Below are positions 310-7,863 of a stretch of DNA of 37,535 bases, piece after piece. Numbering within the stretch: the first letter of the stretch is position 1; each line of letters begins with the position of its first letter. The DNA is from a virus. The position numbers and the translations under genes were made by a program. The stretch spans positions 1 through 37,535 of the IMG/VR virus record IMGVR_UViG_3300036800_000419; one strand, written 5' to 3'. The notes beneath the pieces are model-generated. The model did no database searches, was not told the origin of the DNA, and saw only the letters and a program-made list of their open reading frames with translations.

Positions 310-804
310 ATGGAAATCCCTCCTAAAATTCCCCCGAATTCTGCTCCGCCGCCGGTCATTCAGCAACCTCAATTCGTTTACGTGCTGCCGCAGCCGGCTG
401 CGCCGCCGCGGCGGCGATTTTCCTTTTTGGGGCTGACGGCGGTCATTGTCGGGGTTTTTATCGTCGTGATGATATTCGCGGCTGCGGTTGTCCAGTCCGT
501 CCACTCGGATAATCACAGCAGCTCGTCCCAGGTTGGAAATGTGGCGGCGCCAGTCATCGCCGCGGAAAAAGCTCTCGCTGAGCGAGAGGCGAACATCAAG
601 TCGTGTATAAAAGAACACAAGATTTGCATCGGCATGACTGAGGAAGAATGCCGGCTTTCGTGGGGCAAGCCGCGCAAAATCAATTCCACATCGACCAGAT
701 TTGGGAGATCCGAGCAATGGGTTTATGGCGATAGCTACGTCTATTTTGACGACGGAGTGATTTCGTCCACGCAGATCAGCCGCAGCACAGATGAGGCTCC
801 CTAG
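310..804 (+). CDS. Membrane-anchored protein with BamE/SmpA-like C-terminal domain
   Basis: 164 aa. Residues 1-36 are Pro/Gln-rich and end in an RRRF basic cluster. Residues ~38-62 form one hydrophobic transmembrane helix (LGLTAVIVGVFIVVMIFAAA). A polar linker and short charged helix follow. Residues ~104-155 carry the pattern IGMTEEECRLSWGKP ... SEQWVYG ... VYFDDGVI, typical of small BamE/SmpA-like domains (a Gly-Met-Thr turn, a W-G-x-P step, then two beta strands ending in a YF-x-D/N-G turn). The cytoplasmic Pro-rich tail and trans-membrane domain are inferred. A GAGG lies about 7 nt before the ATG. It is convergent with the small gene at 801-977. Its role, and whether it belongs to the phage or the host, are unknown. 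Confidence 0.75.
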   Translation: MEIPPKIPPNSAPPPVIQQPQFVYVLPQPAAPPRRRFSFLGLTAVIVGVFIVVMIFAAAVVQSVHSDNHSSSSQVGNVAAPVIAAEKALAEREANIKSCIKEHKICIGMTEEECRLSWGKPRKINSTSTRFGRSEQWVYGDSYVYFDDGVISSTQISRSTDEAP

Positions 805-977
805 CGCTTCTGTTGCTGCGCCAGGTCGCGCAAATCGTTTTCCGCCTTTTGCTCTGGCGTTGGGGGTCGGTCCAGCCAGGCCGTCTGTTCTTCGCGCGAG
901 AGGGAATCGAACGGCTCCCACGGCAGCCAGGGATGACGGCAGACAAAACGGTAATGATTGTCCCGCGCCTGGGCCAT
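801..977 (-). CDS. Small hypothetical protein (58 aa)
   Basis: The minus-strand frame from the ATG at 975-977 encodes MAQARDNHYRFVCRHPWLPW and continues with a charged segment ending in DLAQQQKR. A GAGGGG lies 7 nt upstream, which favours this start over the GTG nine codons earlier (1002-1004). The composition is balanced and protein-like, while the competing frames over the same DNA are Arg/Pro/Ser-rich. It overlaps the end of the convergent 310-804 gene by 4 nt. The family is not recognised. It is short, so the call is tentative. Confidence 0.45.
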   Translation of the reverse strand: MAQARDNHYRFVCRHPWLPWEPFDSLSREEQTAWLDRPPTPEQKAENDLRDLAQQQKR

Positions 978-1220
978 CTTCGGCCCCTCGTGAAAGTTTC
1001 GCACGTCATAGCTTCGGCCGCTCCCTGATCATCTGTCAAAATCTGATTTTGCCACAGACATGGGCACCGCCCTACAATTGAGCCCCCGCAAACAAAAAGG
1101 GTCATTTACTATTGTCGCCGTGTCTGGCAACTTCAGCTCATTAGCAGGAACCAACAAACACAAAAGAAGAAAAGTGCCGCTCCCGTAACGGTCACCTTTC
1201 CTTTAGCTTATCCCAAATCT

Positions 1221-1652
1221 TTGTTCGCGAACAGATTTGCGATCAAGTCGGAGGGCCCCTTCAAAATTATAAGTTTCGGACTCATGACGTCATCCGGAAT
1301 GTTGATCGATCGGTTTGATGGCATTCTTGGCCAGGCAACCATCGAGGGCCAAAAAGAGAATTTGGTGCAATATTCCGAATTGGTCGGAACTCCGAAAAAG
1401 AAATTGCCTGATTGGAAGGCTGAATTCGACGCCAACGAGTCGTTTGAATCGCGGTTTCCTGTCATCGATTTTGTGCATGTAACGCATTGGGAAGACAAGC
1501 ACGCCGAGATTTGTTTCATGAATTATTCTCAAGGCATGCTGGGGGATCTAAGTAAAGCGGGAGAGTCGGCCATGGCGGCTTGGGGAGTCGCGTTGATACG
1601 ATGCGAAATTGATTTACAAAGGCGGTTTCTGCACGACCTTTACGAGGGGTGA
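1221..1652 (+). CDS. Hypothetical protein, first gene of the HNH nuclease module
   Basis: 143 aa from a TTG at 1221. The frame is open back to 1047, but I see no ATG, GTG or TTG in frame upstream. The codons just before 1221 (reading SAAPVTVTFPLAYPKS) look protein-like, so the true start may be upstream at a rare codon, or at the internal ATG of codon 22. The product looks like a compact alpha/beta protein, with a C-terminal helix containing AAWGVALIRCEIDLQRR. There is no signal peptide or membrane span. Its stop overlaps the GTG/ATG start of the next gene (GTGATGA at 1649-1655), so the two are probably translationally coupled. The family is not recognised. Base composition is visibly less GC-rich than in the phage genes. 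Confidence 0.6.
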   Translation: MFANRFAIKSEGPFKIISFGLMTSSGMLIDRFDGILGQATIEGQKENLVQYSELVGTPKKKLPDWKAEFDANESFESRFPVIDFVHVTHWEDKHAEICFMNYSQGMLGDLSKAGESAMAAWGVALIRCEIDLQRRFLHDLYEG

Positions 1653-2077
1653 TGATTCTAGTCGATCCAATATCTACCGCAAGCTCAAGCCCCCGGATTG
1701 AGGTTACGCTACAGGTGTCGTCGCGTTCAAAAGCATACGCAGCTGCAGGCATTTCCGGCAACGGGCCGAGTGCAACCGCGGACGGGCCTGAAGCGATATG
1801 CAGTTCTGGCACCACTATAGTGCCGGCGGACATTAGCTATTGGTCTCCGAAAAAAAATCAAGAATACCAAAGGCTGGCCCGAGAAGAAACACGCCGGGAA
1901 TTATCCATTGCAGAGTTGATTGAGTTGGAAGCATTGACCCGGCTCCGGCGCCACGCACATCACCCGCGTTCAGCGGATGAAATCTTGCGAGATCGACGGC
2001 AGGAACGGTTGACCGATGATTTGCTGCGCGCGCTTGCGGCATACGTTGAATTCCATGGATCCCAGAATCGTCCGTAA
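1649..2077 (+). CDS. Hypothetical protein, second gene of the HNH nuclease module
   Basis: 142 aa. The start is GTG at 1649 or the adjacent ATG at 1652, with GAGGGG just upstream inside the previous gene. The first ~65 residues are Ser/Ala/Gly-rich and low in predicted structure. Residues ~68-138 are strongly helical and charged (YQRLAREETRRELSIAELIE and onward), resembling small helical antitoxin or adaptor proteins. That resemblance is general and not a family assignment. Its 3' end overlaps the HNH gene start (2055) by 23 nt, completing a three-gene overlapped set. Confidence 0.55.
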   Translation: MMILVDPISTASSSPRIEVTLQVSSRSKAYAAAGISGNGPSATADGPEAICSSGTTIVPADISYWSPKKNQEYQRLAREETRRELSIAELIELEALTRLRRHAHHPRSADEILRDRRQERLTDDLLRALAAYVEFHGSQNRP

Positions 2078-2687
2078 AAATTTCCCCAAGAACGTCATCA
2101 CCCGCACAAATTACCGGTCCGCATGGCATTGCCTGGCTTCGGATTTCGAGAATCGTTGCGCATATTCGATGCAGCATACAGCACGCGCCGGCGGCCCGAA
2201 GTGTATGGAGGTTGACCACTTTAATCCCAATCGCAAGCGGGACAGCATTCAGAATTATTCCAATCTTTACCCAGCAACGCGTCATTGCAATGGGGCCAAG
2301 CGAGATCGGTGGCCCAAGGGAAAAGATCGCGCTGCCGGAATGCGTTTTCTCGATTGTTGCAAGGAAGCAGATTTTGGGCTGCACATTTTTGAGGACCCTG
2401 ATACCCACGAATTGGTGGGGGTCACGCCGCCAGGGAAATATCATGTGAGAGCTTGCGATCTGAACGCCCCTCACCTCGTGAATGAGCGTCGACAAAGAGC
2501 AGAGGCTCTGCGCTTTTTGAGTTCCCCGCTGAAAATCAAGATGACAAAGGATTGGGATCTGCCTGAGCCAGCGGCCCAACTGCAAGAGTTTGTTCGCGAA
2601 ATGATTCCCCCCATCCCTTATCTTACGGGGCCTGAACTTGAAAAACAGCGCCAGCGAAGAGCCGCAATGGCGGCCGCTCTTCAGTGA
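2055..2687 (+). CDS. HNH endonuclease
   Basis: 210 aa from the ATG at 2055; an in-frame ATG at 2016 would add 13 Cys/Arg-rich residues inside the upstream gene and is less likely. Residues 34-82 hold the HNH core: RCAYS (34-38), EVDHFNP (52-58, with the catalytic Asp54-His55 type pair), N70 in YSNLYP, and RHCNGAK (76-82, with N79 and K82). HNH enzymes cut nucleic acid using one divalent metal ion. The usual zinc-knuckle CxxC pairs are incomplete here: the first is C35-x-x-S38 and the second keeps only C78. The C-terminal ~110 residues are helical with unknown function. It is the last gene of an overlapped three-gene set and is the probable effector. Confidence 0.85.
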   Translation: MDPRIVRKNFPKNVITRTNYRSAWHCLASDFENRCAYSMQHTARAGGPKCMEVDHFNPNRKRDSIQNYSNLYPATRHCNGAKRDRWPKGKDRAAGMRFLDCCKEADFGLHIFEDPDTHELVGVTPPGKYHVRACDLNAPHLVNERRQRAEALRFLSSPLKIKMTKDWDLPEPAAQLQEFVREMIPPIPYLTGPELEKQRQRRAAMAAALQ

Positions 2688-3334: not shown

Positions 3335-3841
3335 ATGACCTTCAGCGACTACGTAAACCTGGCGACTGGCGGCTGCGTCGTGATCATCGCGCTCCTGGTG
3401 CGCGTGTCCGTGGCGCGCCGCATTCTCATTCGCACTGGCGAGCCGATCACCTCGCAGAGTTTTACGCGCGTCGTGTTGGATCTCCGCCGCTGGCTCTGCT
3501 GCCTCTGTTTCCTCCTGTTGCTCTCGGGCTGCGCTTCACCGCACCGCGAAGCCGTCAGCCGCCACACCACGGAACTTTACCAAGGCCGTCCTGACGGCCT
3601 GGTCAAGCGCGACATCTGGGAGGACCGGGAAAGCGGCGGCGGACATTTCCTTTTCACCGACCCCGCCGTCCAATCGATGAACGCCAACCACGTCAATCAA
3701 TCCTCGCTCGGCGGCTCCAACACGTTCACCACTGGCGCCATGACTTTGGTCGTGGACACGAACACCGGCCAGATCGTCGCCGCCACCGGGGCCGCCGTGG
3801 GCAACATTGTGGGAGCCGCCCTCAAAACAGCAGTCAAGTGA
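3335..3841 (+). CDS. Membrane protein with internal lipobox (lysis-region protein)
   Basis: 168 aa. Residues ~12-27 form a first hydrophobic helix (GGCVVIIALLVRVSVA). Residues 51-66 read RRWLCCLCFLLLLSGC, a full lipoprotein signal with lipobox Cys66. In-frame GTG (3473) and TTG (3476) codons sit 18-19 residues before that Cys, so a second product, a lipoprotein starting there, is possible. The C-terminal half is soluble, ending in a Gly/Ala-rich helix (AATGAAVGNIVGAALKTAVK). The hydrophobic core of the lipobox signal is encoded by the 26-nt repeat shared with the intergenic copy at 2753. The stop overlaps the GTG start of the lipase. Holin- or spanin-like roles are conceivable; no family is recognised. 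Confidence 0.65.
   Translation: MTFSDYVNLATGGCVVIIALLVRVSVARRILIRTGEPITSQSFTRVVLDLRRWLCCLCFLLLLSGCASPHREAVSRHTTELYQGRPDGLVKRDIWEDRESGGGHFLFTDPAVQSMNANHVNQSSLGGSNTFTTGAMTLVVDTNTGQIVAATGAAVGNIVGAALKTAVK
3494..3519 (+). repeat. CTCTGYTKC-type repeat, copy 2 (inside a signal sequence)
   Basis: Identical over 26 nt to 2753-2778. In the reading frame of the 168-aa protein it encodes LCCLCFLLL, the hydrophobic core in front of the lipobox. Confidence 0.7.
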
Positions 3842-4674
3842 ACGCCCCCGTCTTAAACTCTTACGATGTCGCTAACGCCCGCGCGCTTTGCCAGGCGTCC
3901 AAGTGCGCGTATCTGGCTGAGACGCCGGGCGTCACGCGCATCGTGTGCGAGGCCTCGGACACCGTTGTTCTGATCGACCAGCAGCCGAACGATCTGATCA
4001 TTTCTTTTCGCGGCACAGCCGATTTAACGAATTGGCTGACCGATCTTGATTGCGCCTTCTCCTATCTTTGCCTGGATTCCAATGCCGAGGTCCACGCCGG
4101 TTTCCTGAAAGCCTGGCATTCGGTGCGTGATGAAGTGCTGCGCGCTTATGTCGCGCTCGCCGGCAATCGCCGGGTCTGGATCACCGGACATTCGCTCGGC
4201 GGCGCCCTCGCGGTCCTGGCCGCCACGGATTTCTTTTTGCAACGCCTGCCCACCGTCTGCGGCTGTTACACGTTTGGCCAGCCGCGCACCGGCAACCTGG
4301 CCTTTCGCGAGTGGTACCAAGTCTGGCTTGGCGCGCGCACCTTTCGCGTGATTCACGCCGACGACATGGTGGCGCGCATTCCCTGGCTGCTCGGCGCCTA
4401 TCGCCATGTGGGCCATGAAGTTTTTTATCCTTCGCCCGCTGGATCCTCGTCCCTGGCGCCGCAACTGGATCCGCCGCTCTGGTCCAAGCTGCCGTCCGAT
4501 GTGCGCGGGCTCTGGCGCGAACTGGCGCCATGCCTCACCCGCGAAACGCTCTGTCAACTCACAGGCGCGATCGCTCTCCGGGATTGGGTAATGATCGTGA
4601 AGATCGTCCGCACCGCCAAGATCGCGTTGCTCAACGATCACCACGTCAATCTCTACGCCGATTTATTCGCATGA
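3838..4674 (+). CDS. Class 3 (fungal-type) lipase/esterase, phage-encoded
   Basis: 278 aa; GTG start overlapping the previous stop (GTGA). It has an alpha/beta-hydrolase of the lipase class 3 family. FRGT (57-60) forms the oxyanion-loop region, VHAGFLKAW is at 85-93, the nucleophile elbow GHSLGG is at 117-122 with Ser119, YTFGQPRTGN is at 144-153, and the Asp motif HADDMVARIP is at 173-182 (Asp176 best fits). The C-terminal DHHVNLY (267-273) supplies the catalytic His (268 or 269). The family hydrolyses ester bonds of acylglycerols or phospholipids. No signal peptide is seen, so export would need a holin or other help. It lies upstream of the gp25/gp26/terminase genes, where Mu-type phages carry their lysis genes, and I find no peptidoglycan hydrolase in this block. 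A host-envelope esterase role in lysis is inferred. Confidence 0.9.
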   Translation: MNAPVLNSYDVANARALCQASKCAYLAETPGVTRIVCEASDTVVLIDQQPNDLIISFRGTADLTNWLTDLDCAFSYLCLDSNAEVHAGFLKAWHSVRDEVLRAYVALAGNRRVWITGHSLGGALAVLAATDFFLQRLPTVCGCYTFGQPRTGNLAFREWYQVWLGARTFRVIHADDMVARIPWLLGAYRHVGHEVFYPSPAGSSSLAPQLDPPLWSKLPSDVRGLWRELAPCLTRETLCQLTGAIALRDWVMIVKIVRTAKIALLNDHHVNLYADLFA

Positions 4675-4880
4675 AAGCCGCGCCCTTCCAGCCACTGACC
4701 CGCGAGGAGCACGCCAACATGCTCAACTGCGCGATGCTCTGGACGATGAAGCGCGCCGATTGCCTGCTCGCCAAGCGCGGCCGTTGGACCCAGCGCGACG
4801 AAGTGGAGCTAAACGAAATCTACCTGCGCCGCCTCCAGATCGACCGCGACATCGAACGCTTTAACGACCAAGCAGCATGA
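4671..4880 (+). CDS. Small hypothetical phage protein (69 aa)
   Basis: The ATG at 4671 overlaps the lipase stop (ATGA), and its stop overlaps the next ATG in the same way. The product is entirely soluble, helical and charged, ending ELNEIYLRRLQIDRDIERF, with a Cys/Met-containing N-terminal half. Upstream in-frame codons are Arg-rich shadow sequence inside the lipase gene, so they are excluded. It sits between the lipase and the DUF2730-like protein, in the stretch corresponding to Mu genes 23-25. No function is recognised. Confidence 0.7.
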   Translation: MKAAPFQPLTREEHANMLNCAMLWTMKRADCLLAKRGRWTQRDEVELNEIYLRRLQIDRDIERFNDQAA

Positions 4881-5446
4881 AATTATTTACCGGAGCCAGC
4901 AGAGGAAACAGAGATTCTCGCGCCGCCGCGAGGCGCGCGACCGGCTTGGACACCCGGCCTTTCGGTCTCTGTTTCCTCTGTTGCCTCCTGTTGATGGCGC
5001 CGCTGTCCGCCTTCTGCGATCCGGCCAGCCCGCCTGCCGCTGGCGGAGACCACGGGTGGATGATCGCCGTCAGCATATCGTCCGTCCTCTCCATGCTCGC
5101 GGCCGTCGCGGGATTGATCACACTTTGGGTGACGCAACGCTCTTCGCAGGCGCGGTTTGTGACCCTTGCCGCCGAGTATGTAGAACGCCGGACGTTTGAG
5201 CAGCACGTGGCTCAGGACAGCGCGGCGCATCTCAAACTGGAGGACAAAATCTCGCATGAATCCGGGATGGCCACAGCCGGACGGCAACGCCTGCATGAAC
5301 GGATCGATCCGCTGCAGGACGGCGTCGCCTCGCTTACCGCCACTGCCGAGGCGTTGGGCCGCACGACAGCGACGCTTAATGCCAGCGTTTCGGACTGCAA
5401 CACGCAAATCGGGAAATTGGTGGACCACCTCTTGCGCAAGAAATGA
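4877..5446 (+). CDS. Membrane plus coiled-coil protein, DUF2730-like (Mu gp25 position)
   Basis: 189 aa, ATGA-coupled on both sides. Residues 1-28 are basic and hydrophilic. Residues 29-46 form a Cys/Leu-rich signal-like core (LCFLCCLLLMAPLSAF). Residues ~61-84 are a clear transmembrane helix (WMIAVSISSVLSMLAAVAGL), followed by a long heptad-like region to the end (YVERRTFEQHVAQ ... LVDHLLRKK). One membrane helix followed by a coiled coil, lying two genes before the small terminase, matches the DUF2730/Mu gp25 architecture; an i-spanin-like function is an alternative. The first 40 codons are odd: codons 7-36 coincide with an 18-bp stem-loop built from the CTCTG repeat (4897-4983), so the N-terminus may be an acquired extension. 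The next in-frame part from residue ~55 would suffice for the family. Confidence 0.7.
   Translation: MKLFTGASRGNRDSRAAARRATGLDTRPFGLCFLCCLLLMAPLSAFCDPASPPAAGGDHGWMIAVSISSVLSMLAAVAGLITLWVTQRSSQARFVTLAAEYVERRTFEQHVAQDSAAHLKLEDKISHESGMATAGRQRLHERIDPLQDGVASLTATAEALGRTTATLNASVSDCNTQIGKLVDHLLRKK
4897..4994. repeat. Long stem-loop containing the CTCTGYTKC repeat, copy 3
   Basis: The left arm 4897-4914 pairs with 4966-4983 over 18 bp with a single G-U-type mismatch. The 51-nt loop holds two further hairpins: CTCGCG/CGCGAG (4917-4922, 4927-4932) and CCGG/CCGG (4941-4944, 4954-4957). The right arm is the repeat itself: CTCTGTTTC, CTCTGTTGC, CTCCTGTTGA (4967-4994). The element lies inside the coding region for the N-terminus of the 189-aa membrane protein. 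Confidence 0.7.
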
Positions 5447-5712
5447 CTCCTGATCAAATCGAACTTTATCGCCGCCGCATCCTATTTGTGCTCGATGCGC
5501 AGCGGCGCCGCGACGGCCTCCCCGCCGACGTTGTGCAGCTCCACGCCAACGCGCAGACCGGCCTAGAGGGCTCGCTGGACTTTGTGCGGGACCAGCTTGA
5601 CTACCTTTCGCGCCGCGACCCGCCGCTCGTGGAAGAAGCCTTGAAGGCTATCAGCAAAGAGCGGCGCGCCTGGCGCATCACCACCGCGGGCTCGGCTCTC
5701 ATTGATTTTTGA
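5443..5712 (+). CDS. Mu gp26-like small phage protein
   Basis: 89 aa; the ATG overlaps the preceding stop. It is all-helical and charged: RRRILFVLDAQRRRDGLPAD, a middle FVRDQLDYLSRR and a C-terminal WRITTAGSALIDF. Size, helical content and position directly before the small terminase match gp26-type proteins of Mu-like phages. The function of that family is not established. It is soluble with no membrane segment. The assignment rests on order and general character, not on a diagnostic motif. Confidence 0.65.
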   Translation: MTPDQIELYRRRILFVLDAQRRRDGLPADVVQLHANAQTGLEGSLDFVRDQLDYLSRRDPPLVEEALKAISKERRAWRITTAGSALIDF

Positions 5713-5719
5713 CGAATGA

Positions 5720-6259
5720 ATGAAACCGCGCTCGGACTCCAAACTGAAAAACCTGCCGCCCGAACGGCAGGCCGCGATAGCGGCGCGCCTGGGCGCGGGT
5801 GGCCCGGACAGCTCCCTGCAAGCCGTCTGCAACTGGCTGCGCGAGGATGGCGTCGAAACTTCTACCGGGGCGCTCTCGCAATTTTATTCCTGGTGGCAAT
5901 TGCGCCGGCAATGCGAGCAGAACGAAGCGGCGGTGGAGGGTTTGCTGGAGTCGGTCAAGGAGCTGGGGATCACGGCGACGTCCGAGCAGCTGCAAGCTTT
6001 GGGCCAGGCGTTCTTCACCAAGAAAGCGATCGAGCAGCAGGACTCCAAGCAATGGTTCAACGCGCAACGTCTGGCGCTGAAGAAAGAAGAGCTGCTGATC
6101 GACCGGCAAAAATTCCAGCGGGAAACCTGTCAACTATTTCTGGAATGGGCCGAGGACCAGCGCGCCAGGGACATTGCCGCAGGCGCGGCTTCCAATTCGG
6201 AGAAGATCGCCAAACTGGGCGAGTTGATGTTCGGCGAGGATTGGGCGCCGAAACCATGA
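5720..6259 (+). CDS. Terminase small subunit, DUF3486 (Mu gp27-like)
   Basis: 179 aa. The N-terminal part reads LKNLPPERQAAIAARLGAG ... LREDGVETSTGALSQFYSWW (about 8-60), the hallmark helix-turn-helix arrangement of DUF3486 proteins (Mu gp27). A long helical region (60-150) and a short acidic tail follow. The family acts as the small terminase subunit that selects phage DNA for packaging and partners the ATPase encoded next. The start at 5720 is chosen over the out-of-frame ATG at 5716. The stop overlaps the large terminase start (ATGA at 6256). No Shine-Dalgarno site is visible. Confidence 0.8.
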   Translation: MKPRSDSKLKNLPPERQAAIAARLGAGGPDSSLQAVCNWLREDGVETSTGALSQFYSWWQLRRQCEQNEAAVEGLLESVKELGITATSEQLQALGQAFFTKKAIEQQDSKQWFNAQRLALKKEELLIDRQKFQRETCQLFLEWAEDQRARDIAAGAASNSEKIAKLGELMFGEDWAPKP

Positions 6260-7863
6260 CCAAGGAGCGCAAAAACAGCTTTCGCGTCCGCGCCGGCCAG
6301 CGCGAGTTTGAGCGCGGCGTTGAATTGCATCGCATCTGCGCGCTGCTGGCTCGCCGGCAATACGGCAAGACGACGATCTGCGCCCGCATCTCGCTTAAAA
6401 AAATGATGCGCACCGCCGGGCACACGGTTGTTTTCGGCTCGGTCAAATTGGATCTTGGGCGCGAGATCGTGCGCAAGGAAGCCGCCGAGCTGCAAAAAGC
6501 TTTTGGCAAAATGGCGCAGCAAGCCGAGGCGGCCAACAACCTCCTGGATGTCGTGGATGATCGCGGCCAAAGCGTCGCGAAAGTTTCCGCCGATGACTAC
6601 GCCGAACTGTACGAATCCTCCCGCCTGGAGATGCGGCTCTACCACTCCAAGTCCGTTTACTCCCGCACCAAAGTCGTGGCGCTCACGTCGGATGCAGTCG
6701 GCGAAACCGGCGACCTTATCCTGGATGAAGTCGGACGCGTGAAGAAATTCCGCGATGTCGTCGAGGCCGTCACGCCGATCATCGCCAGCAATCCGGATTT
6801 CCGCCTGATCTACACCACCACGCCGCCGCCGGACGACACGCACTATTCGTTTGATCTATTGGCGCCGCCCATCGCCGGCGAGCTGCCGATCAATCCGAAG
6901 GGCAATTGGTATCGCTCCGATTTGGGCGTCTGGGTGCTGCGCGTCACGGCCTGGGACGCTCATGCCGATGGCGTGCCGCTCTATGACGACGACACTGGCG
7001 CCGAGATCACGCCCGAACAATCCCGCGCCTCCAGCCATGACAAGGACGCCTGGGACCGCAATTACGGCTGCAAGTTCGTGGTCGGCGGCACCAGCGCATG
7101 CGGCTTGCTGCAGCTCGACAGCGCGCAACGCCGCGGCCTCGGCCAATGCGCTTATTTTCGCATCGACTCCGATGCTGATCTCGATCTCGCCTTGCGGTTC
7201 CTTGTGGAACACCTGACTTCCGGTCCGGTGGGCCTCGGCTGGGACCTGGCCACCACCACCAAGGCGACGAGCAATCCAAGCTCCCTCGCCGTGGTCGAAG
7301 GCCACGGCAATGAAAAGATTATCCGCGCCATCATCAATTGGAAGGTCTCCGATCCTGCGGTTGCGGTAGAGCGCGTGCGCCGCATTGCGCAGGCCGTGAA
7401 GCTGCGTCGCGAAGGCGGCCCGGCCCGCCGGCTCTGCATCGACGCCACCAACGAGCGTTACTTCGCCCAGGCGTTTCGGAACGACCTTGCTGATCTCGTC
7501 CCCGTCGAACTGGTCATCGCCAGCGAAACGGTCGAAGTCCCCGGCCAGGACGATCCCATCACCCGCAAGCAACTCCTCGGCGGCAATCTCGTGGCGGAGT
7601 TGGACGACAACCACCTGTGGCTGCCGCCCGAGCGGTTTGTACGCGAGGACTGGCGCCTGGTTAAAAAGGAAAAAGGTCAATTCGTCTGTGAGCCGGACGC
7701 CGAAGGCCGCCATGGCGACACCTTTGACGGCGCCAAGCTCGGTTTGGAAGCTCTCACCTCCACCAAAGGAGCCATTGAATCCACCGCCGGCTGGGCGGTG
7801 GGATCCAATCATCGCCACCGGGCGCAATTTACGCCGCGCCGGCTGGCAAGGAGGTTGGCATGA
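6256..7863 (+). CDS. Terminase large subunit (Mu gp28-like)
   Basis: 535 aa. The packaging ATPase half has a deviant Walker A motif ARRQYGKTT (32-40), Walker B DLILDE (153-158) and coupling motif YTTTP (186-190). The C-terminal RNase H-fold nuclease has three acidic positions: D330 in GLGWDLATT, D396 in LCIDATN, and D488/D491 in HGDTFDGAK. The protein powers DNA translocation into the head and cuts the genome. The frame is open upstream to 5716, but that part is shadow of the small terminase gene; the ATG at 6256, overlapping the small-subunit stop, is the start. The length is normal for the Mu gp28 group. Confidence 0.92.
   Translation: MTKERKNSFRVRAGQREFERGVELHRICALLARRQYGKTTICARISLKKMMRTAGHTVVFGSVKLDLGREIVRKEAAELQKAFGKMAQQAEAANNLLDVVDDRGQSVAKVSADDYAELYESSRLEMRLYHSKSVYSRTKVVALTSDAVGETGDLILDEVGRVKKFRDVVEAVTPIIASNPDFRLIYTTTPPPDDTHYSFDLLAPPIAGELPINPKGNWYRSDLGVWVLRVTAWDAHADGVPLYDDDTGAEITPEQSRASSHDKDAWDRNYGCKFVVGGTSACGLLQLDSAQRRGLGQCAYFRIDSDADLDLALRFLVEHLTSGPVGLGWDLATTTKATSNPSSLAVVEGHGNEKIIRAIINWKVSDPAVAVERVRRIAQAVKLRREGGPARRLCIDATNERYFAQAFRNDLADLVPVELVIASETVEVPGQDDPITRKQLLGGNLVAELDDNHLWLPPERFVREDWRLVKKEKGQFVCEPDAEGRHGDTFDGAKLGLEALTSTKGAIESTAGWAVGSNHRHRAQFTPRRLARRLA

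What the first reader, a model, noticed from the sequence alone, without database searches (positions are those of the whole stretch)
4897..4994. A repeat-derived stem-loop inserted into a gene supplies its signal-sequence core
An 18-bp stem (one wobble) with two inner hairpins covers codons 7-36 of the 189-aa membrane protein. Its right arm, made of CTCTGTTTC/CTCTGTTGC/CTCCTGTT units, encodes the Leu/Cys-rich hydrophobic core. Relatives with the DUF2730-like layout do not need this N-terminal part. This looks like a palindromic mobile element that was domesticated into a signal sequence.
Basis: partly seen in the sequence, partly recalled or inferred. Interest (0 to 1): 0.68.

Follow-up and report, generated by a model that had tools for sequence, protein, structure and literature searches.

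The report
Dispersed hairpin repeat extends phage gene
A hairpin-shaped repeat that is scattered through the genomes of Verrucomicrobia and Planctomycetes sits in-frame at the very start of a membrane-protein gene of a Mu-like phage, where one arm spells out a greasy stretch that looks like a signal sequence; whether the phage really translates and uses it is likely but not shown.

Summary
A 27-nt arm pair (4888-4914 / 4966-4992) gives the strongest inverted repeat in the window, and its core 18-bp stem is as described. It is a copy of a dispersed inverted-repeat element: the right-arm pattern TCTCTGTTnCCTCTGTTnCCTCCTGTT matches exactly in 40 loci of 84,980 species genomes, nearly all Planctomycetota or Verrucomicrobiota. 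MAGs carry 3-100 copies within 3 mismatches, often as inverted pairs, against 0 for the reversed control. The phage's relatives are Verrucomicrobiota prophages. Twenty syntenic homologues begin about 3-25 residues before their membrane helix and lack the element. In-frame copies in FolC and a DUF3516 helicase show that the family does enter genes.

Two points stay open. Removing 105 nt leaves AAATTATTT|ATGGCG, so the ancestral start was probably Met40 and the element landed flush against it. Translation of the 39-residue extension is favoured (in-frame ATGA-coupled start; Met40 is now locked in the stem) but unproven, and signal function is inference. In-frame palindromic repeats are known (Rickettsia RPE, Opitutus REPs). 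This is a different repeat, in a phage, with an arm that encodes a hydrophobic core; a second phage contig (L051) shows the same frame and layout.

The parts
4888..4992 (+). whole element: dispersed palindromic repeat copy, 105 nt = 35 codons (edges uncertain by 1-2 nt)
   Evidence: alignment of arms to the copies in L009-L048; inverted repeat I1
4888..4914 (-). left arm, TACCGGAGCCAGCAGAGGAAACAGAGA; diverged copy of consensus AACAGGAGGnAACAGAGGnAACAGAGA; read in the gene frame as TGASRGNR(D)
   Evidence: reading frame
4966..4992 (+). right arm, TCTCTGTTTCCTCTGTTGCCTCCTGTT; perfect match to the pattern with two free positions; read in the gene frame as LCFLCCLLL
   Evidence: exact pattern in 40 genome loci and 3 viral loci; frame hydropathy
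4897..4983 (+). main hairpin: 20-bp RNA stem 4897-4916/4964-4983 with inner hairpins 4918-4940 and 4943-4959
4877..5446 (+). 189-aa ORF (protein P0001), DUF2730/releasin-like by position and layout only; first ATG overlaps the stop of the upstream ORF (ATGA)
   Evidence: no Pfam or PHROG match
4994..4996 (+). Met40, in-frame ATG directly after the element; probable ancestral start codon
   Evidence: empty site AAATTATTT|ATGGCG and N-tail length of homologues; start region now needs 25.6 kcal/mol to open
4967..5014 (+). first hydrophobic segment, residues 31-46 (LCFLCCLLLMAPLSAF): nine residues from the right arm, seven from older sequence
   Evidence: hydropathy
5060..5137 (+). second hydrophobic segment, residues 62-87; the single membrane helix shared with the homologues
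4671..4880 (+). 69-aa ORF upstream, ATGA-coupled to the lipase-like gene (3838-4674) and to the 189-aa ORF
   Evidence: sequence; ORF list one search gives the longer 4530-4880 form
5443..5712 (+). 89-aa ORF downstream, ATGA-coupled; terminase (5716-7863) follows

Best explanation
A copy of a palindromic repeat (27-nt arms of three 9-nt units, variable loop) that is dispersed in Verrucomicrobiota and Planctomycetota chromosomes was inserted into this Verrucomicrobiota Mu-like phage between the AT-rich leader and the old start codon (Met40) of a small gene, next to the lysis and packaging genes, that codes for a membrane protein with one helix and a coiled coil. The insert is 105 nt, stop-free and in frame with an upstream ATG that overlaps the stop of the preceding gene. 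The insertion buried the old start in a very stable hairpin, so the gene is now most likely started at 4877 by translational coupling. The protein so gains 39 residues: a basic n-region (net about +5) from MKLF, the left arm and the loop, and a hydrophobic core from the right arm fused to the old N-tail. That would work as a signal sequence or first membrane segment, so the old helix keeps its N-out/C-in orientation although the new N-tail is positive. Shown: the repeat, its family, its absence from homologues, the open frame, the hydropathy. Inferred: insertion as an event, use of 4877, membrane topology, any benefit.
For: Right arm exact in 40 loci of genome contigs, nearly all PVC bacteria, mostly with the reverse-complement arm nearby; 3-100 copies per MAG with 0 for the reversed pattern; 10 of 366 further Verrucomicrobiota genomes against 0 of 377 further Pseudomonadota genomes at up to 2 mismatches. 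Terminase relatives in 18 of 387 Verrucomicrobiota and 0 of 294 Planctomycetota genomes. Twenty syntenic homologues start about 3-25 residues before the helix with net charge 0 to -2, and no element arm within 5 mismatches lies in 693 kb of relatives' loci. Start-region opening energy 4.5 kcal/mol at 4877 against 25.6 at 4994 and 23.2 at 5060. Right-arm frame LCxLCxLLF has GRAVY 2.73 and no stop for any choice of the free bases. The family enters genes in-frame: FolC in L107 and a DUF3516 helicase in L125, with shorter linkers in order-level relatives. A second viral contig, L051, has the element in the same frame at the start of an ORF: MDTNLTGGNRGNREGLLRCLCLLMLISVLPASGA.
Against: One contig, no expression or protein data. 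No close relative with the empty site was found. A TGA stop is preceded by A, giving ATGA, one time in four by chance. N-terminal repeat copies are often extragenic because translation starts further down (PMC3733652). Met40 gives an N-tail length (about 21) and charge (-2) normal for the family, 4877 does not. Elements are not enriched just upstream of ATGs of long ORFs (8 sites against 2-16 in shifted controls), and only about 3 of 98 palindromes lie convincingly inside genes.
Confidence: 0.55

Rival explanations
1. Same repeat insertion, but it lies in the untranslated leader. The gene still starts at Met40 (4994) or Met62 (5060), and the open frame through the element back to 4877 is fortuitous. 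The hairpin only separates two genes or lowers expression.
For: Met40 start gives a homologue-like N-tail; empty-site leader AAATTATTT is of a type seen at other starts of this phage (100% AT in -9..-1; 2% of all ATGs but 5 of 21 gene starts reach 0.8); most family copies are outside genes; the literature warns of exactly this for N-terminal repeats.
Against: The 4994 and 5060 start regions are locked in structure (25.6 and 23.2 kcal/mol) and the leader is now 105 nt away; the insert is a multiple of 3 and stop-free; the neighbouring genes are also coupled by ATGA/GTGA.
Confidence: 0.33
2. The hairpin is kept for an RNA function: a double-stranded stem of about 20 bp in a polycistronic late message, cut by RNase III or slowing ribosomes, that sets the ratio of upstream lysis-type genes to downstream packaging genes.
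For: Very stable stem; MITE and REP hairpins in transcripts are said to act this way in other bacteria (text of PMC3733652).
Against: No Rfam match; no relative carries the element here, so no conserved need; nothing here tests processing.
Confidence: 0.08
3. An old signal sequence conserved at the protein level that happens to resemble the repeat.
For: The C-terminal part of the hydrophobic run (MAPLSAF) is not from the repeat.
Against: None of 20 homologues has an earlier separate hydrophobic segment or a basic N-region; the likeness to the repeat is at DNA level on both arms.
Confidence: 0.03
4. A chance palindrome in GC-rich coding DNA with no relation to any repeat.
For: None beyond the fact that short hairpins are common.
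Against: z = -5.8; the 27-nt arm recurs exactly in 40 genome loci and in inverted pairs.
Confidence: 0.01

Closest known systems
Rickettsia palindromic elements (RPE-1, RPE-4, RPE-6; the latter two CGTC-tagged)
   Same: Palindromic repeats inserted in-frame in ORFs; N-terminal RPE-1 copies are reported as expressed (PMC3733652).
   Different: Unrelated sequence; CGTC tag not seen here; bacterial chromosome genes, not a phage gene; no hydrophobic core from the arm noted in the text read.
GTAG-tagged REPs of Opitutus terrae and other Verrucomicrobia/Planctomycetes
   Same: Same phyla; [quoted passage not shown] terrae.
   Different: The element here shows no GTAG tag; it is a pair of 27-nt arms of 9-nt units around a variable loop.
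TIR repeats of TIRtrons / MITEs
   Same: Short non-coding element bounded by inverted repeats and dispersed in the genome.
   Different: No transposase with these arms found: 30 Y1-type transposase loci in element-bearing genomes carry no arm. Target-site duplication not identified.
Mu gp25 / DUF2730 releasin
   Same: Position downstream of lysis-type genes and upstream of terminase; one helix near the N-terminus then a long coiled coil; N-out/C-in layout (PMC9239132).
   Different: No match to PF10805 even at E = 5; the window protein has an extra basic and hydrophobic N-terminus that the homologues lack.

Membership tests
dispersed PVC inverted-repeat family (AACAGGAGGnAACAGAGGnAACAGAGA - loop - TCTCTGTTnCCTCTGTTnCCTCCTGTT) | right arm matches the consensus | tested here: met
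   0 mismatches in 25 fixed positions; note that the pattern was taken from this arm and then found in 40 other loci
dispersed PVC inverted-repeat family (AACAGGAGGnAACAGAGGnAACAGAGA - loop - TCTCTGTTnCCTCTGTTnCCTCCTGTT) | inverted left arm within about 130 nt | tested here: met
   loop 51 nt; family loops 0-131 nt
dispersed PVC inverted-repeat family (AACAGGAGGnAACAGAGGnAACAGAGA - loop - TCTCTGTTnCCTCTGTTnCCTCCTGTT) | many copies in the host genome | not testable with these tools
   the host genome of this phage is not known; the phage record holds one copy; related genomes hold 3-100
REP (GTAG or CGTC type) | GTAG or CGTC tetranucleotide at one end of the palindrome | tested here: not met
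   not in the arms or at the edges of the element in the sequence
RAYT / TIRtron-mobilised element | Y1 tyrosine transposase gene flanked by the same repeats | tested here: not met
   no arm (up to 7 mismatches) in 30 Y1_Tnp loci with up to 1.5 kb flanks; the remaining hits were not scanned
MITE | target-site duplication and sign of transposition | tested here: inconclusive
   no clear duplication at the two edges by eye; copies at many sites with different flanks, but no empty-site pair at DNA level
in-frame intragenic palindromic element (RPE-like) | ORF stays open and in frame through the element | tested here: met
   105 nt
in-frame intragenic palindromic element (RPE-like) | the element is translated | not testable with these tools
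   no expression data; see start-codon argument
DUF2730 / releasin | match to PF10805 | tested here: not met
   no hit at E up to 5 for the window protein or eight homologues
DUF2730 / releasin | gene position and TM-plus-coiled-coil layout | tested here: met
   description in PMC9239132
Sec signal sequence | basic n-region, hydrophobic core, small residues at -3/-1 | tested here: inconclusive
   n- and h-regions present by hydropathy and charge; cleavage site weak (AFC|D); no dedicated predictor or export test available

The most novel reading that the evidence does not exclude
The repeat's pyrimidine arm is a portable hydrophobic core. Whenever it lands in the LCxLCxLL frame at the start of a phage gene it creates a signal sequence or membrane anchor in one step, and this has been kept at least twice in unrelated phage genes (window and L051).
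Probability: 0.22. Interest if true: 0.72.

Novelty: new variant of a known kind. Interest (0 to 1): 0.5.

Why it matters
In-frame palindromic repeats are known mainly from Rickettsia and a few REP-rich chromosomes. A case in a phage, where the arm itself encodes a hydrophobic core and a second phage contig shares the frame, gives a concrete, testable route by which non-coding repeats create export or membrane signals. It also puts on record a palindromic repeat family of Verrucomicrobiota and Planctomycetota for which I found no description in the papers searched.

Tried and rejected
Close relatives of the 189-aa protein itself: none in viral contigs and one weak, unconvincing phage match. 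Exact pattern with both arms in viral contigs: none. RNA family: none in Rfam. RAYT link: no arm near 30 Y1_Tnp loci. Enrichment of the element just before start codons: none. DUF2730 and PHROG membership: no match. Loop of the window element against other copies: only the arms matched in the hits listed. ORFs through the element in L021, L009 and L029 were judged probably spurious from base composition by codon position. Relatives of the L051 ORF: only itself.

Full report
Observation. The sequence shows the stem 4897-4914/4966-4983 with one wobble and the pyrimidine-rich right arm exactly as written. Folded alone, 4897-4994 gives -53.7 kcal/mol with a 20-pair stem and two inner hairpins; no dinucleotide shuffle of 200 reaches it, z = -5.8. 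A repeat search extends the complementarity outward to 26-nt arms, 88% complementary, 51 nt apart, the best inverted repeat in the window. The 189-aa ORF (4877-5446) runs through it without a stop.

The element. The right arm, with its two variable positions left free, was sought exactly in one genome per species of 84,980 species. It occurs in 40 loci, nearly all in MAGs named Planctomycetota, Pirellulales, Verrucomicrobia, Limisphaerales or Pedosphaera, plus six loci of a MAG named only 'bacterium' and one of a Burkholderiales MAG. In most of them the reverse-complement arm lies a short way upstream, giving a consensus AACAGGAGGnAACAGAGGnAACAGAGA - loop - TCTCTGTTnCCTCTGTTnCCTCCTGTT, often followed by CAA. 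With up to 3 mismatches, 20 of these genomes hold 3 to 100 copies each, in both orientations; the pattern read backwards gives none. In an even draw of genomes with up to 2 mismatches, 11 of 367 Verrucomicrobiota (10 of 366 without the seed genome) and 1 of 378 Pseudomonadota (the seed itself) have it. Among the loci fetched, 98 distinct palindromes have loops of 0 to 131 nt, mainly 3-27 and 76-108 nt. The window copy has a perfect right arm and a left arm diverged in its outer part.

The phage. The window is a virus record of 37,535 bases with a Mu-type portal, a Mu I-type protease and a terminase. Its terminase has relatives in 18 of 387 Verrucomicrobiota genomes (up to 52% identity) and in none of 294 Planctomycetota genomes; the portal has relatives in 65 of 387 Verrucomicrobiota genomes. 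Genomes G001 and G030 carry both a relative of the phage genes and the repeat. The phage therefore most likely lives in a phylum where the repeat is found; its own host is not known.

The gene. No database model matches the 189-aa protein. From the loci of terminase and portal relatives I collected 20 genes in the same position. They share one helix near the N-terminus, then a charged coiled coil, in many with a motif like EYVxKxDFE. They start about 3-25 residues before the helix with net charge 0 to -2, and none has a separate, earlier hydrophobic segment; the start codons of eight of them were trimmed by eye to the ATG nearest the family pattern. No element arm within 5 mismatches is found in 693 kb of these loci. 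Position and layout are those described for the Mu releasin gp25/DUF2730, N-out and C-in (PMC9239132), but PF10805 itself does not match, so I call it releasin-like by layout only.

Where it was inserted. Taking out 105 nt leaves GCATGAAATTATTT|ATGGCGCCGCTG. The joined site has an in-frame ATG (Met40) behind AAATTATTT. Starts in this phage show no clear Shine-Dalgarno sequence and several have AT-rich leaders of this kind, and a protein starting at Met40 has an N-tail (MAPLSAFCDPASPPAAGGDHGW) normal for the family. The simplest history is that the element landed directly before the old start codon. This is inference: no empty site was found in another genome.

What it does now. The 4877 start overlaps the stop of the upstream ORF as ATGA; the genes at 3838, 4671 and 5443 are coupled in the same way. 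The region around 4877 is easily opened (4.5 kcal/mol), those around 4994 and 5060 are not (25.6 and 23.2 kcal/mol). I therefore think translation from 4877 is more likely than not. The product would have a basic N-tail and a hydrophobic run of 16-17 residues, about half of it from the right arm, before the old helix. By the positive-inside rule (established knowledge) a basic N-tail would resist export, and the new hydrophobic run lets it stay inside while the old helix keeps its direction. The arm read in this frame is LCxLCxLLF, GRAVY 2.73, without stops for any choice of the free bases; the other frames are less hydrophobic or hydrophilic. Cleavage (AFC|D) is doubtful, so an uncleaved hairpin of two helices is as possible as a signal peptide.

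Other genes with in-frame copies. In one Verrucomicrobiota MAG (G013) copies sit inside FolC (L107; Pfam Mur_ligase_M runs across it) and inside a DUF3516 helicase (L125); order-level relatives have shorter linkers there (about 14 and 9 residues less in the clearest rows). A Limisphaerales MAG has one in a 1076-codon open frame of unknown family (L033). These use a hydrophilic frame (EQExTEKTE or similar). In the viral contig L051 the element stands at the start of a 190-aa ORF in the same frame as here, giving MDTNLTGGNRGNREGLLRCLCLLMLISVLPASGA; codon-position composition after the element supports a real gene (GC by position 0.55/0.48/0.72). It too has an ATG within the right arm (MLISVLPASGA), so the same doubt about the start applies.

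Known background. In-frame palindromic repeats are described for Rickettsia (RPE) and for GTAG/CGTC REPs, with O. terrae (Verrucomicrobia) the richest in intragenic GTAG copies; the same paper warns that N-terminal copies may be extragenic and notes that N-terminal RPE-1 proteins are expressed (PMC3733652). The present repeat lacks those tags. No Y1 transposase with these arms was seen in 30 loci. Two searches for a description of such a repeat in Verrucomicrobia or Planctomycetes found only that paper and unrelated ones; absence there is weak evidence of novelty.

Verdict.

Noticed in passing
L051:1351-1923: Second viral contig with the same repeat at the start of an ORF, in the same frame, giving a signal-like N-terminus (LLRCLCLLMLISVLPASGA); weak, below-cutoff likeness to a tail-fibre N-terminal domain.
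   Followed up: partly
L107 (FolC ORF 683-2275, minus strand; element near 1469-1527): Copy of the repeat in-frame inside folylpolyglutamate synthase of a Verrucomicrobiota MAG; relatives have a shorter linker there.
   Followed up: yes
L125:1501-1562: Copy in-frame inside a DUF3516 helicase; the same protein seems to hold a second insert-like stretch (EALSCSRLQQANCGDKAVPAPTASWSSGRLQQA).
   Followed up: partly
L033:5479-5544: Copy in-frame in a 1076-codon open frame that looks like a P-loop NTPase by eye (GLGGEGKTSL); no Pfam match.
   Followed up: partly
window 3838-4674: Class 3 lipase gene next to the lysis-side genes of the phage, starting with a GTGA overlap to the gene before it.
   Followed up: no
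window gene starts, e.g. 11493, 12953, 15439, 26794: Phage genes mostly start without a clear Shine-Dalgarno sequence; several have AT-rich stretches right before ATG.
   Followed up: partly
G019:C89 and C647 (L043, L047); L009:1521-1851: In some genomes the palindrome seems to be part of larger units of some 170-370 nt repeated in tandem.
   Followed up: no
G013 against G018: Loop length looks species-specific: about 5 nt in one genome, about 90 nt in the other.
   Followed up: no
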